Shown in pieces: positions 456 to 31,467 of a stretch of DNA of 32,057 bases. The translations under genes were made by a program, and so were the position numbers. Source of the DNA: Solobacterium sp. GTDB taxonomy: Bacteria; Bacillota_I; Bacilli_A; Erysipelotrichales; Erysipelotrichaceae. The stretch spans positions 1 through 32,057 of the forward strand of contig JAFUGM010000051.1 of assembly GCA_017469355.1 (NCBI GenBank). The letters are read 5' to 3'. Positions within the stretch are counted from its first letter, which is position 1, and each line of letters starts with the position of its first letter. Under the pieces are notes generated by a model. That model worked only from the letters and a program-made list of their open reading frames with translations, had not been told where the DNA came from and did no database searches.

Positions 456-519
456 ACTTCAGTGAAGTAGTGTAGTTTTCAGTGAAGTACAGTGAAGTTT
501 TACTACACTGCACTTCACT
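456..519 (+). promoter_or_regulatory. Operator-like array of AGTGWAGT octamers
   Basis: Six octamers are visible: AGTGAAGT at 461-468, AGTGTAGT at 469-476, AGTGAAGT at 481-488 and 491-498, then the inverted copies ACTACACT at 502-509 and ACTTCACT at 512-519; a partial ACTTC sits at 456-460. The last four form a symmetric block with a TTT centre. The array ends 6 bases before a TATAAT box and covers the expected -35 region, so a protein bound here should block transcription of the gene at 553. The same block recurs just behind that gene. Confidence 0.7.
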
Positions 520-525
520 AAGATG

Positions 526-541
526 TATAATATGTGAGGGG
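526..541 (+). promoter_or_regulatory. -10 box and ribosome binding site of the AlbA_2 gene
   Basis: TATAAT lies at 526-531, and GAGGGG at 536-541 serves as SD 11 bases before the ATG at 553. No good -35 is visible; the place is occupied by the inverted octamers. If the TATAAT box is used, the 5' leader is only about 15 bases, and the SD would lie at its extreme 5' end. Confidence 0.5.
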
Positions 542-552
542 TTTGGTCATAC

Positions 553-2013
553 ATGAAAATCGAAAACATTGTTGAACAGGCATATCTCGAAACAAAAGAA
601 ATCGAGTTTAAGGTCACGATTGAAGAAGGAAAAAATGATAAAGGAAAGCTGAAAGAAATCAACTGGCTGAAAACGATCTGCGCCTTTTCTAATACGGAAG
701 GAGGCGTGATTTATATTGGTGTTGATGATGAAACACACGATGTAAGAGCGTTTACCCATAAGGAAGCAGATAAATTGATTCAGATGATCCATCGGCAGAT
801 CAGAAACAGAATCACCCCTCTCATCAGCTATGATATTTCCACCATTACCATTCCCGCAAAAGAACAGCCTCGTTATGTAATTTGCGTTGTGGTGGAAAAA
901 AGTTCTGCTCTTCCTGTCGCACTGCACGAAGAAGGACTATTGGGGATCTATGTCCGCAGCTACGGGCGAACCGATATCGCATCATCCGAGCAGATTCGCA
1001 ATCTTGTCCTGATGAGCGAAAACGTTCCATACGACTCGATGTTCACCGATGCGATTTTCACGAAAGAATGGTTTTCAGAATTTCTGAATACGGCTGAAAG
1101 CGCCGGAAACAGGGTAACCGAAAAGGAACTGATATTAAAGAAAGTGATCTCTGACAAAAAGAAGCTTTCCAAAGGTGCATTGTTATTCACGGATGACTGT
1201 GAAGATCTAATCACAAAGGTTGTCGCTACACACTGGCCAGGTATCAATAAAGGCGACAGTATTGTAATTAACAGTCAGGTGTTTACCGGCAACCTGATCA
1301 GCGTCATCCGAAACTCAGTTGATTTTGTGTCCGCCCATTCCGCAAATGGATTTGTGAAACAAAGCAATGGCAGATCAGATTACATCGCATATCCACCGCG
1401 ATCCGTGCTGGAAGGAATTGTAAATGCGGTGGCACATCGAAATTACTATATCGATGGCACTCAGATTGAAATAAACATCTTCAAAGACCGTCTTGAAATC
1501 ACATCTCCCGGATCCTTGTTAGGTGTACAGAGGCTTTATAAGGAAAAAAGCATTTCCTCTATCATCCCCAGACGCAGAAACGAAATCATCTGTTCCATGT
1601 TGGAGCTTTGCAAACTCCTGGAAGGAAAAGGGACTGGATTTGACAAAATCGAGGAAGATTACGCAGTTTTTGAGGACAGGTATCGTCCCTTTGTTTCATG
1701 TGATGCTCACGCTTTCACACTCACATTGCCTGATGTGACATATAAAAGTGGTGTAGTAAGTGAAACTGATACAATTCCGTCTGTATATGTGGAAGGAATG
1801 TTATCAGGGAAACACGATCTGAGTATTCTGGCATTCTGCTTTAGTAAAGAACGAACTGTAAAGGAGATCTCAGAATACCTGAACGTAACACCTTCCACCT
1901 ATTTCCGCAGAAACGTTATAGGTCGCTTGTGTAATGACGGTTTCCTGATTGAAGTTAAACACGAAAGAGGCAATACCTACCGGGCAAATACAAGAAAAGT
2001 TAAATTACAGTGA
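553..2013 (+). CDS. AlbA_2/Schlafen-type ATP-binding regulator with C-terminal winged helix
   Basis: The 486-residue protein starts with an AlbA_2 (Schlafen-AAA_4 type) domain: KEIEFK at 15-20 and the AFSNTEGGVIYIGVDD segment near 44-59. A RecG-like ATP-binding region follows in the middle, with VNAVAHRNYY and LEITSPGSL typical of this family's GHKL-like fold. A helix-turn-helix resembling a winged helix lies at about 415-486 (ERTVKEISEYLNVTPSTYFRR). Proteins of this family are annotated as transcriptional regulators or RecG-like helicases, and their true role is rarely known. The gene stands alone and is bracketed by matching octamer arrays; its TGA stop lies inside the second array. Autoregulation through these sites is my inference. 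An accessory or defence-related role is possible but unproven. Confidence 0.85.
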   Translation: MKIENIVEQAYLETKEIEFKVTIEEGKNDKGKLKEINWLKTICAFSNTEGGVIYIGVDDETHDVRAFTHKEADKLIQMIHRQIRNRITPLISYDISTITIPAKEQPRYVICVVVEKSSALPVALHEEGLLGIYVRSYGRTDIASSEQIRNLVLMSENVPYDSMFTDAIFTKEWFSEFLNTAESAGNRVTEKELILKKVISDKKKLSKGALLFTDDCEDLITKVVATHWPGINKGDSIVINSQVFTGNLISVIRNSVDFVSAHSANGFVKQSNGRSDYIAYPPRSVLEGIVNAVAHRNYYIDGTQIEINIFKDRLEITSPGSLLGVQRLYKEKSISSIIPRRRNEIICSMLELCKLLEGKGTGFDKIEEDYAVFEDRYRPFVSCDAHAFTLTLPDVTYKSGVVSETDTIPSVYVEGMLSGKHDLSILAFCFSKERTVKEISEYLNVTPSTYFRRNVIGRLCNDGFLIEVKHERGNTYRANTRKVKLQ

Positions 2014-2054
2014 AGTACAGTGTAGTTTTACTACACTCACTTCACTGTACTTCG
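2009..2054 (+). repeat. Second copy of the AGTGWAGT inverted array
   Basis: AGTGAAGT (2009-2016), AGTGTAGT (2019-2026), TTT, ACTACACT (2030-2037) and ACTTCACT (2039-2046) repeat the architecture of the block at 481-519, followed by a partial ACTTCG. The stop codon at 2011-2013 is part of the first octamer. As RNA it would form a stem of about 16 pairs, but no U-tract follows, so it is not an ordinary terminator. Confidence 0.75.
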
Positions 2055-2134: not shown

Positions 2135-2659
2135 TCAGGAGTCAAAGAACTGACGTCCATCTTCTATCACAAGACGTTCTGTTCCAGGATACCGAAAGAT
2201 ATCCGGGTTTTCTGCATTCTCTGCCAGATACCCGGCAAATTTACGCGCATACCATTTTGCCATAGTGAGATTATGCATAAGATAATTTCCACAATTCTCC
2301 GCAGAAGCTCCAGGAACCTCATCTACCTGTTCAACAGAGTTAAATGCGCTGAGAAGGAAGGAGAAGATCTCTTCCGGCTTCCGTTCTCCCTTAAGAATCA
2401 GATAAAAGCCTGTCAGGCAACCCATCGGTCCCCAATAGATCACCTGATCCTTCCACTCCGCATCATTTCTCATATACGTCGCGATCAGATGTTCCAGCGT
2501 ATGCATGGCAGCTACATCAATTCCCGGTTCGATGTTAGGCCGTGTGACTCGTACATCATAGGTTGTAATCTTCTGATCCCCCAGAGTGTCTACGCGGCTG
2601 ACGTAGATTCCCGGAATGATTCTCGTATGATCAACGGAAAAACTCGGAATTAAATCCAT
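2135..2659 (-). CDS. luxS: S-ribosylhomocysteine lyase LuxS
   Basis: LuxS cleaves S-ribosylhomocysteine to homocysteine and DPD, the precursor of autoinducer-2, in the activated methyl cycle. The 174-residue protein shows the metal site HTLEH (H53, E56, H57) with C123 in AENCGNY, and the catalytic Cys C81 in GPMGCLTGFY. It is somewhat longer than the usual 155-160 residues because of its C-terminal tail. The start at 2659 is chosen because CCTCCT at 2669-2674 gives an AGGAGG SD nine bases upstream. An ATG-like start at 2686 would lie inside the -10 box. The gene is monocistronic, with its own promoter and terminator. No other quorum-sensing gene is in the window. Confidence 0.97.
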   Translation of the reverse strand: MDLIPSFSVDHTRIIPGIYVSRVDTLGDQKITTYDVRVTRPNIEPGIDVAAMHTLEHLIATYMRNDAEWKDQVIYWGPMGCLTGFYLILKGERKPEEIFSFLLSAFNSVEQVDEVPGASAENCGNYLMHNLTMAKWYARKFAGYLAENAENPDIFRYPGTERLVIEDGRQFFDS

Positions 2660-2668
2660 AACACAAAT

Positions 2669-2713
2669 CCTCCTGTTACTTTCCAATATAACTTAGCCTT
2701 AGTGCTGGCGCAA
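2669..2713 (-). promoter_or_regulatory. luxS promoter and SD
   Basis: On the minus strand, TTGCGC (2713-2708), a 17-base spacer and TATATT (2690-2685) form a good sigma-70/SigA type promoter. AGGAGG follows at 2674-2669. Confidence 0.6.
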
Positions 2714-4321: not shown

Positions 4322-4585
4322 TCACCTATAGACTTCTCTTCGATGCCCTACAGACAACACCAAGATTACGATCCCATCATCATGTATCTCACAGATGATC
4401 CTGTAATCTCCTATGCGGTATCTCCAGGGTCCTGCTTTATCTCCAGTCAATGCTTTGCCATGTACTCTAGGATCATCGCACCCCTCCAGATTCTTTCGTA
4501 TCCAGCCAAGAATAAGTGCAGACACTTATCTGTCCATCTTTTTCAGTTCTTTTATTGCCTGCTGCGATAATATGACATGAAACAT
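4322..4585 (-). pseudogene. RelE/ParE-type toxin with in-frame stop at codon 20
   Basis: Immediately after the antitoxin stop (TAG at 4588-4586), ATG at 4585 opens a frame reading MFHVILSQQAIKELKKMDR, then TAA (4528-4526), then [15 protein letters not shown] and on to GHRREVYR. The whole matches a RelE/YoeB-like mRNA interferase layout, including the [15 protein letters not shown] core. The stop splits an otherwise normal-length toxin of about 87 residues. A GTG at 4525, directly behind the stop, could restart translation, but the product would lack strand 1 and helix 1 of the RelE fold. The antitoxin remains intact. A sequencing error cannot be excluded from one read of the locus. Confidence 0.8.
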
Positions 4586-4804
4586 CTATAAGCCAAGCTC
4601 CTTTTCAACTTCTTCGAGAGTGTAAGTCTTTGGATCTTTTTTATATTCTTCGGTCGCTTTATTGTATGCGGCAAGATCAATCTCATCCTCTATTTTTTCT
4701 ATTACAGCCTGACGGATCAGATCAGAAACACTTATATTGTTGATCTTTGCATAGTCTTTGATCAGCTTCGTATCTTCTTCAGAAAGTCTCAATGATATAG
4801 CCAT
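4586..4804 (-). CDS. RelB/DinJ-like ribbon-helix-helix antitoxin
   Basis: This is a 72-residue protein with an N-terminal ribbon-helix-helix motif (MAISLRLSEEDTKLIKDYAKINNISVSDLIRQAV, here described as residues 1-34) and an acidic, Lys/Glu-rich tail that would wrap the toxin. Such antitoxins neutralise a RelE-type RNase and repress their own operon. The stop abuts the toxin ATG with no gap, so the two are translationally coupled. GGAGGAGG ends 8 bases before the ATG and lies inside the ssrA terminator hairpin. With the toxin broken, it may now act only as a repressor or as a guard against homologous toxins. Confidence 0.85.
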   Translation of the reverse strand: MAISLRLSEEDTKLIKDYAKINNISVSDLIRQAVIEKIEDEIDLAAYNKATEEYKKDPKTYTLEEVEKELGL

Positions 4805-30048: not shown

Positions 30049-31467
30049 ATGTTAATTGGCAGAGAACATGAAATTCAAGTACTCGAAGAAGCATATCAGG
30101 CACAAGAGTCCCAATTTATAGCTGTGTACGGCAGACGCAGAGTTGGCAAAACCTACTTAATCCGTGAAAGCCTGAACTCAAAAATCACGTTCCAACATTC
30201 AGGATATTACGGCGGAAAACTATCTGACGAATTATTTGAATTCTGCTCATCTCTCAGGGAATATGGATTGACAGAATTTTCCAGGCCAAAAAACTGGCTT
30301 GAGGCGTTTGAATTACTCAAAGAGCTGATTCGAACATCGCCTCACGAGAAAAAAGTCATTTTCTTAGATGAACTATCATGGATGGACACATCTGGAAGTG
30401 ATTTTCTCATGGCACTTGAAGGATTCTGGAATGGATGGGCTTCCGCTAGAAAGGATGTTCTGTTAATTGTCTGTGGGTCTGTGACTTCCTGGATGCTAAA
30501 CAACATCATTCATAACAAAGGCGGACTATATAACCGGCTGTCCTATCGCATTCATCTTCAGTCATTTACCCTGAAAGAATGTGAGGAGTACATCCAATCC
30601 CGAAACATTATCATGAATCGGCATCAAATCCTTGAATGCTACATGATTATGGGAGGAATACCCTATTACTGGAGCTTCCTTCAAAAAGGCCTCAGTTTAC
30701 CACAAAATATCGATCGTCTCTTTTTTGCCAAAGATGCGATGTTGGAAGATGAGTTCAATCATCTATATGCCGCATTATTTAAAAAACCTGATGCTTACAT
30801 CAAGATTGTGGCTGCGTTAGGAAAAAAGAAAGCTGGCATGACAAGGGAAGAACTGCTGGCCGCAACCCATCTTGCAGACTCAGGGAATTTCACAACCAAG
30901 TTAGAAGAACTGGAAAGCTGCGGTTTTATTCGAAGATATCAACGTTATGGCATGAAAGAGCGACAGGCTATATTTCAATTGATTGATAACTTCACCCTGT
31001 TTTATTACAAATTCCTGGAAAACAAGCCAACCGATGAACATTTCTGGACAAATCAAATTAATACGCCCTCAGTTAACGCATGGTGCGGCATCGCATTTGA
31101 ACGGGTTTGTCTTCAACATGTTTTCCAAATGAAACAGGCGTTAGGAATATCCGGTGTTTTAAGCGAATCATATTCATGGGCCTGCAAAGCAGATTCCGAA
31201 AAAGGGATCCACGGTTCCCAGATTGACCTGATGATTGTAAGGAAAGATCAGATTATCAACTTGTGTGAAATGAAGTTTTCAAGAAGAACATTCACAATCA
31301 CTCAAGATGTTGCGGATGAAATCAGACATAAAAGCTTAGATTTCTTATCTGTCACAAACTCCCGTTATGCAATTCACCCAGTTATGGTTACACCTTATGG
31401 TATTTCTGATAATTCCTATGCTGGAGATATACAAAAAGTGATCACTACAAAAGATCTATTCCAATAA
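30049..31467 (+). CDS. AAA-family ATPase with DUF234/PD-(D/E)XK C-terminal domain
   Basis: The 472-residue protein has Walker A GRRRVGKT at 28-35 and Walker B VIFLDEL at 103-109. A winged-helix part near 262-300 follows (MTREELLAATHLADSGNFTTKLEELESCG region). The C-terminal nuclease-like domain has E351, D393 (SQIDLM) and E407-x-K409 (CEMKF). This is the layout of archaeal-type ATPases with DUF234, common as accessory genes in gut Bacillota and Bacteroidota and of unknown biological role. It stands alone behind a double inverted-repeat operator, and both flanks carry the same 29-bp terminator sequence. A defence or mobile-cassette role is possible; no direct evidence. Confidence 0.9.
   Translation: MLIGREHEIQVLEEAYQAQESQFIAVYGRRRVGKTYLIRESLNSKITFQHSGYYGGKLSDELFEFCSSLREYGLTEFSRPKNWLEAFELLKELIRTSPHEKKVIFLDELSWMDTSGSDFLMALEGFWNGWASARKDVLLIVCGSVTSWMLNNIIHNKGGLYNRLSYRIHLQSFTLKECEEYIQSRNIIMNRHQILECYMIMGGIPYYWSFLQKGLSLPQNIDRLFFAKDAMLEDEFNHLYAALFKKPDAYIKIVAALGKKKAGMTREELLAATHLADSGNFTTKLEELESCGFIRRYQRYGMKERQAIFQLIDNFTLFYYKFLENKPTDEHFWTNQINTPSVNAWCGIAFERVCLQHVFQMKQALGISGVLSESYSWACKADSEKGIHGSQIDLMIVRKDQIINLCEMKFSRRTFTITQDVADEIRHKSLDFLSVTNSRYAIHPVMVTPYGISDNSYAGDIQKVITTKDLFQ

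What the first reader, a model, noticed from the sequence alone, without database searches (positions are those of the whole stretch)
456..2054. AlbA_2 regulator gene bracketed by two copies of the same inverted octamer array
The block AGTGWAGT x2, TTT, ACTWCACT x2 is present over the promoter (481-519) and again over the stop codon (2009-2046), with two more octamers upstream. A palindromic array on both sides of a single gene could allow loop repression, or mark the gene as a cassette with its own ends. The family is often found as an accessory gene of unknown role.
Basis: partly seen in the sequence, partly recalled or inferred. Interest (0 to 1): 0.62.

Follow-up and report, generated by a model that had tools for sequence, protein, structure and literature searches.

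The report
Schlafen gene cassette bracketed by operators
A likely anti-phage RNA-cutting gene of the Schlafen family sits between two direct copies of a repeat array that its own protein probably binds, and in related bacteria the whole gene is missing with exactly one array left behind, so the arrays act as precise cassette ends.

Summary
The arrays are real: AGTGWAGT octamers at 461-519 and 2009-2053, 11 hits against 1.15 expected, and perfect pairs occur nowhere else in the genome. The gene (553-2013) encodes a bacterial Schlafen: SLFN_AlbA_2 domain with the ExxxxExK RNase motif, a GHKL/HATPase domain and a C-terminal winged helix.

In relatives the promoter array is a subfamily feature, but its motif differs (GTGAAGT, TTGAAGT, TAGAAGT, GCGAAGT). 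In 25 non-redundant loci the promoter array is repeated downstream, always as a direct repeat, usually starting at the stop codon. The bracket is scattered on the tree (16 changes, like shuffled labels). At four gene sites in other genera, a close relative has the two flanks joined by exactly one array and no gene, as with solo LTRs or attB. Gene-less arrays are conserved: at one site 42/42 motif positions are kept across species while spacers and flanks fall to 58-68%.

Looping is possible but untested; specific co-variation with the HTH was tested and not found. No precise empty site exists for this window's own locus. Best reading: a self-regulated, probably anti-phage Schlafen cassette whose operator arrays double as recombining ends.

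The parts
461..476 (+). two head-to-tail octamers AGTGAAGT, AGTGTAGT upstream of the main block
480..519 (.). 5' (promoter) copy of the direct-repeat array: AGTGAAGT-AC-AGTGAAGT-TTT-ACTACACT-GC-ACTTCACT
   Evidence: direct repeat to 2008-2046, 95% over 40 columns
526..531 (+). likely -10 box TATAAT; the array occupies the -35 region
   Evidence: read from sequence; inference
536..541 (+). likely ribosome-binding site GAGGGG, 11 nt before ATG
   Evidence: read from sequence; inference
553..2013 (+). 486-aa bacterial Schlafen protein
589..612 (+). ExxxxExK motif (E13, E18, K20), the Schlafen RNase catalytic signature; nearly invariant in homologues
   Evidence: A1; motif defined in PMC12215978
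589..972 (+). SLFN_AlbA_2 domain (PF04326), residues 13-140
   Evidence: E 6.5e-20; Schlafen structures found by profile and fold
1456..1728 (+). HATPase_c_4 / GHKL domain (PF13749), residues 302-392; conserved E287/N291 (N-box-like) just before it and a GxGFDKI stretch within it
   Evidence: E 7.4e-16; A1
1816..1986 (+). C-terminal winged helix, residues 422-478 (H-H-H-strand-strand), ArsR/SmtB-like
   Evidence: AlphaFold model pLDDT about 90 there; Foldseek 1smt 2.1 A over 62 columns, a weak hit by E-value, 0.049
2008..2053 (.). 3' copy of the array, starting in the stop codon: AGTGAAGT-AC-AGTGTAGT-TTT-ACTACACT-C-ACTTCACT-GTACTTC

Best explanation
The gene encodes a stand-alone bacterial Schlafen (RNase domain, GHKL ATP-binding domain, winged helix), probably an anti-phage effector. 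Its winged helix probably binds the octamer array; several dimers on the array cover the -35 region and repress the gene, keeping a harmful RNase low. The array is also repeated directly after the stop codon, so array-gene-array forms a cassette with direct terminal repeats. Recombination between the two arrays removes promoter and gene exactly and leaves one array (a solo array); the reverse event, homologous recombination of incoming cassette DNA with a solo array, would put a gene back. Shown here: arrays, direct-repeat bracket, its repeated occurrence, precise gene-less alleles with a single array in relatives, purifying selection on solo arrays, domain content and catalytic motif. Inferred: binding, repression, RNase activity, defence role, direction of the event, and that the window's own locus behaves like its relatives.
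For: Domains: Pfam, PDB profile hits to SLFN5/11/14, fold match to 3lmm E 1e-18 and to Schlafen N-terminal domains. The ExxxxExK residues that SLFN14 needs for RNA cleavage (PMC12215978) are E13/E18/K20, nearly invariant. Bracket: 25 non-redundant loci with 90-100% identical 5'/3' blocks, all direct (sign test p 6e-8), most starting within -11..+16 of the stop codon. The bracket label changes at least 16 times on the tree, as for shuffled labels. Precise gene-less alleles: L092 site, G676 = left flank + one 55-nt block + right flank; L076 site, G676 and G551 one array; L084 site, G559 one array, flanks 92-94%; L088 site, G676 one 79-nt block identical to G646's, no gene. Solo arrays conserved: site D motifs 42/42, spacers 13/21, flanks 58-68%, p 1.5e-7. 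More distant homologues mostly lack arrays, so the arrays belong to this subfamily. [quoted passage not shown]
Against: No near relative with an empty allele exists for this locus: the nearest luxS neighbourhoods (66-79% protein identity) have neither gene nor array but differ right past luxS. The solo-array cases come from another family of the same class, where the homologues are only about 35-45% identical. Motif-HTH co-variation beyond whole-protein relatedness was not found. Some homologues have 5' arrays only. The genomes are probably mostly metagenome assemblies, so identical repeats could be collapsed in assembly, although sites B and D (diverged or shared arrays, long contigs) argue against that. 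Conservation of solo arrays without a gene is not predicted by a pure scar view.
Confidence: 0.6

Rival explanations
1. Loop/handcuffing autoregulation only: the 3' array is a second operator, and protein bound at both ends bridges the gene and shuts the promoter. Precise loss is just an accidental by-product of repeats.
For: 3' motifs are conserved in the vertically inherited trio L081/L083/L102 and the 42-nt block is nearly identical in L089/L092 although the genes are 76% identical. GHKL domains dimerise on ATP (general knowledge). Iteron plasmids (P1 repA, F repE) have this layout (general knowledge).
Against: Looping does not require direct orientation, near-identity of spacers or a start at the stop codon. 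The 3' array is absent in 18 of 46 scored homologues with no phylogenetic pattern. Solo arrays are conserved without the gene.
Confidence: 0.2
2. Mobile element whose own protein (or a host recombinase) inserts and excises it at arrays, the arrays being att-like ends.
For: attL/attR/attB-like geometry at four sites; the arrays include or touch the stop codon and end before the -10 box. Closest proteins lie in different families and phyla (Erysipelotrichaceae, Lachnospiraceae, Coriobacteriaceae) while same-genus proteins can be only 35-37% identical. L063 carries a further 91-nt direct repeat of the gltD end outside the arrays.
Against: No recombinase fold or cut-site signature. No near-identical copies at different sites were seen. 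Plain homologous recombination over 40-80 nt repeats suffices for the losses.
Confidence: 0.12
3. Tandem-duplication remnant: array-gene-array is what remains of array-gene-array-gene after the second gene decayed.
For: Direct orientation, and a 3' copy abutting the stop codon, as in a tandem unit; L072 repeats terminator plus array on both sides.
Against: tblastn with the homologue set found no second gene or pseudogene after the 3' array in the bracketed loci, and the break is at the stop codon rather than at varied points; the gene before L033 is a Crp-like regulator judging by its translated sequence, not a paralogue.
Confidence: 0.08

Closest known systems
Bacterial Schlafens / COG2865 (Schlafen RNase + minimal histidine-kinase-like ATPase + wHTH), structure 3LMM
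   Same: Domain order, fold (3lmm top Foldseek hit) and the ExxxxExK motif; the architecture is described beside BREX loci (PMC12839542)
   Different: Stand-alone orphan here, next to luxS and not in a defence operon; the operator-array bracket and solo arrays are not described in the papers found
Insertion with long target duplication of restriction-modification genes in Helicobacter pylori (Nobusato et al. 2000, cited in PMC3031569 and PMC4978471)
   Same: A defence gene flanked by long direct repeats; gene-less allele holding one repeat copy (the latter partly from general knowledge of that work)
   Different: Here the repeat is the gene's own operator array with a protein-specific motif, and single copies are conserved without the gene
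Iteron-controlled replicons (P1 repA with incC/incA; F repE with incB/incC), from general knowledge
   Same: Autoregulator gene with its binding-site arrays on both sides
   Different: Not a replication initiator; chromosomal; precise gene-less alleles
Solo LTRs / attB sites (general knowledge)
   Same: Recombination between direct terminal repeats leaves one copy
   Different: No reverse transcriptase or known integrase; the repeat is a DNA-binding-site array

Membership tests
Bacterial Schlafen (SLFN_AlbA_2 RNase) | SLFN_AlbA_2 domain | tested here: met
   PF04326 E 6.5e-20, score 72 against cut-off 25
Bacterial Schlafen (SLFN_AlbA_2 RNase) | ExxxxExK catalytic motif | tested here: met
   E13, E18, K20 nearly invariant in A1; motif from PMC12215978
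Bacterial Schlafen (SLFN_AlbA_2 RNase) | C-terminal GHKL ATPase and wHTH | tested here: met
   PF13749 E 7.4e-16; model with winged helix 422-478
Bacterial Schlafen (SLFN_AlbA_2 RNase) | RNase / anti-phage activity | not testable with these tools
   needs assay
Insertion with long target duplication | long direct repeats flanking the gene | tested here: met
   480-519 against 2008-2046
Insertion with long target duplication | gene-less allele with a single repeat copy | tested here: inconclusive
   met for relatives at four sites; no comparable allele found for the window's own locus
Insertion sequence / DNA transposon | inverted terminal repeats and transposase | tested here: not met
   terminal arrays are direct repeats; no transposase domain
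Iteron replicon | replication initiator protein and origin | tested here: not met
   Schlafen-type protein with no initiator domain, embedded beside luxS, not a separate replicon
Loop-repressed operon | both arrays bound by the same protein and both needed for repression | not testable with these tools
   needs binding and reporter assays

The most novel reading that the evidence does not exclude
Chromosomal arrays of short binding sites act as lasting docking sites at which Schlafen defence genes are gained and lost as exact cassettes, with the Schlafen protein's own array binding (possibly its nuclease and ATPase) driving or guiding the exchange. The arrays are kept by selection even while empty.
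Probability: 0.12. Interest if true: 0.85.

Novelty: new variant of a known kind. Interest (0 to 1): 0.62.

Why it matters
Stand-alone Schlafens are widespread accessory genes of unclear behaviour. This gives a concrete, testable cis-element for them: a protein-specific operator array that is also a precise cassette end. It offers a route to how single defence genes come and go without transposases, and gene-less conserved arrays can be used as markers to find the sites. It also predicts the DNA-binding specificity of each homologue from its own promoter.

Tried and rejected
Phage or plasmid origin: no relative in viral contigs with this query; one plasmid homologue (Butyrivibrio pCY360, 37%, locus L113) with a 5' array only. 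Known defence family: only weak PADLOC similarity to Argonaute-associated proteins. Array-HTH co-variation by eye looked good but failed the control for whole-protein relatedness. Tandem paralogue upstream of L033: it reads as a Crp-like regulator instead. Empty site for the window via luxS synteny: none precise. Empty site via L081 flanks in its genus: the fourth genome has the flanks on different contigs. Genus of G807: no relatives with matching flanks. L066/L067 difference: contig ends with what looks like an insertion element inside the 5' array, not a different insertion site.

Full report
OBSERVATION. The two blocks are a 40-column direct repeat (480-519 and 2008-2046, 95%). In the host genome perfect octamer pairs occur only here. 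The 5' block fills the -35 region before a TATAAT at 526-531; the 3' block begins inside the stop codon.

PROTEIN. The 486-aa product has SLFN_AlbA_2 and HATPase_c_4 domains. An AlphaFold model (mean pLDDT 84) shows a C-terminal three-helix plus two-strand winged helix. Foldseek puts 3lmm (a Corynebacterium protein of unknown function) first, then Schlafen N-terminal domains, the SAMD9 tRNase domain and, weakly by E-value, SmtB/ArsR winged helices. The ExxxxExK motif, whose Glu and Lys residues are needed for RNA cleavage by SLFN14 (PMC12215978), is E13/E18/K20 and nearly invariant. [quoted passage not shown] I therefore call it a stand-alone bacterial Schlafen; RNase and defence activity are inferred.

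ARRAYS IN HOMOLOGUES. I collected homologues from the genus, family, order and phylum and from genome contigs and scanned their flanks. Most have a promoter array. The motif has a common core (xyGAAGT) and varies: GTGAAGT (window, L063, L088), TTGAAGT (L035, L090, L106), TAGAAGT (L081, L105, L109), TAGAAAT (L107, L111), GCGAAGT (L075). Paralogues in one genome can use different motifs (G646: GTGAAGT, TTGAAGT and AAGAAGT types). More distant homologues (23-32% identity) mostly lack arrays. Motif similarity follows whole-protein similarity (partial p 0.0002) but not the HTH specifically (p 0.28), so 'the wHTH reads the array' remains an inference.

BRACKET. In 25 non-redundant loci the promoter array recurs downstream at 90-100% identity; all are direct repeats (sign test), and 21 start within -11 to +16 of the stop codon. 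The block often contains the stop codon and ends just before the -10 box. On a 48-protein tree the label 'both sides' needs 16 changes, against 15.5 for shuffled labels, with at least 11 forced by well-supported branches. The bracket is therefore gained or lost again and again, each time as a copy of that gene's own array. In three vertically related loci (L081, L083, L102) the duplication is older than the species split and the copies drift apart, the motifs less than the spacers.

GENE-LESS ALLELES. Flank searches in two genera and fetched sequence gave precise comparisons. Site A: G646 carries L092 between two 55-nt blocks; G676 has the same flanks (97-99%) joined by exactly one block; G551 carries the orthologue L089. 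That distribution suggests loss in G676. Site B: G646 carries L076; G676 and G551 have one array. Site L084: G592 carries the gene; G559 (flanks 92-94%) has one array; G593 has neither gene nor array. Site C: G646 carries L088; G676 has one 79-nt block identical to G646's 5' block although the flanks are 78% and 54% alike. At L093 (5' array only), G676 matches G646 up to the end of the array, then differs. Site D: an array of six TAGAAGT copies without any Schlafen gene in G646, G676 and G551; between G676 and G551 the motif positions are 42/42 identical, spacers 13/21, flanks 58-68%. In 1.19 Mb of G676 and 0.36 Mb of G646 every cluster of four or more sites belongs to such a locus, and shuffled sequence gives none; the first 0.4 Mb of G551 shows the same at the cut-off of four.

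MECHANISM. The simplest account: the array is the protein's operator; a second direct copy at the gene's end makes a cassette; recombination between the copies removes the gene cleanly and leaves a solo array. Homologous recombination over 40-80 nt is enough for loss. How the second copy arises is open: integration of incoming cassette DNA at an existing array, insertion with target duplication, or an activity of the protein itself. A resembling case is the 'insertion with long target duplication' of restriction-modification genes (Nobusato et al., cited in PMC3031569 and PMC4978471). Conservation of empty arrays is the least explained fact. Either the gene is polymorphic in populations, so the array is selected where the gene is present, or the arrays are bound in trans, or they have a function of their own.

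LIMITS. The window's locus itself has no close empty relative. The gene-less alleles come from other genera of the class, in homologues about 35-45% identical. Binding, repression, RNase activity and defence were not tested.

Noticed in passing
L063:2732-2822 and 4578-4668: A 91-nt direct repeat (97%) of the 3' end of gltD lies outside the two arrays of the Coriobacteriaceae copy, like a long target duplication around the whole cassette.
   Followed up: partly
G646:C1:110329-110391, G676:C1:493231-493293, G551:C1:163619-163681: Shared solo array of six TAGAAGT sites without a Schlafen gene, with motif positions fully conserved across three species.
   Followed up: yes
L107 upstream region: Three array copies (two upstream, one downstream) around one gene, perhaps a solo array beside a complete cassette.
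   Followed up: no
G450:C15 end and G450:C6 end (L227, L067): An insertion-element-like sequence with inverted ends (GGC...GCAAGAA) interrupts the 5' array of the L066-type element.
   Followed up: partly
L093 site in G676:C1:782014-797332: The promoter array of L093 is kept but gene and promoter are replaced by about 15 kb of other DNA.
   Followed up: partly
L046 flanks: A more distant homologue also has an 83-nt, 92% direct repeat on both sides without an obvious octamer array.
   Followed up: no
window 2135-2686 (-): luxS (S-ribosylhomocysteine lyase) is convergent to the Schlafen gene; a ZIP-like transporter gene follows (name from reading the sequence).
   Followed up: partly
L100, L104, L080: Homologues with a 3' array but no 5' array, possibly with a replaced promoter or dying copies.
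   Followed up: no
window 30049-31467 (+): 472-aa protein that reads like an ATPase of the AAA/DUF234 kind (recalled resemblance); no NCBIfam match.
   Followed up: no
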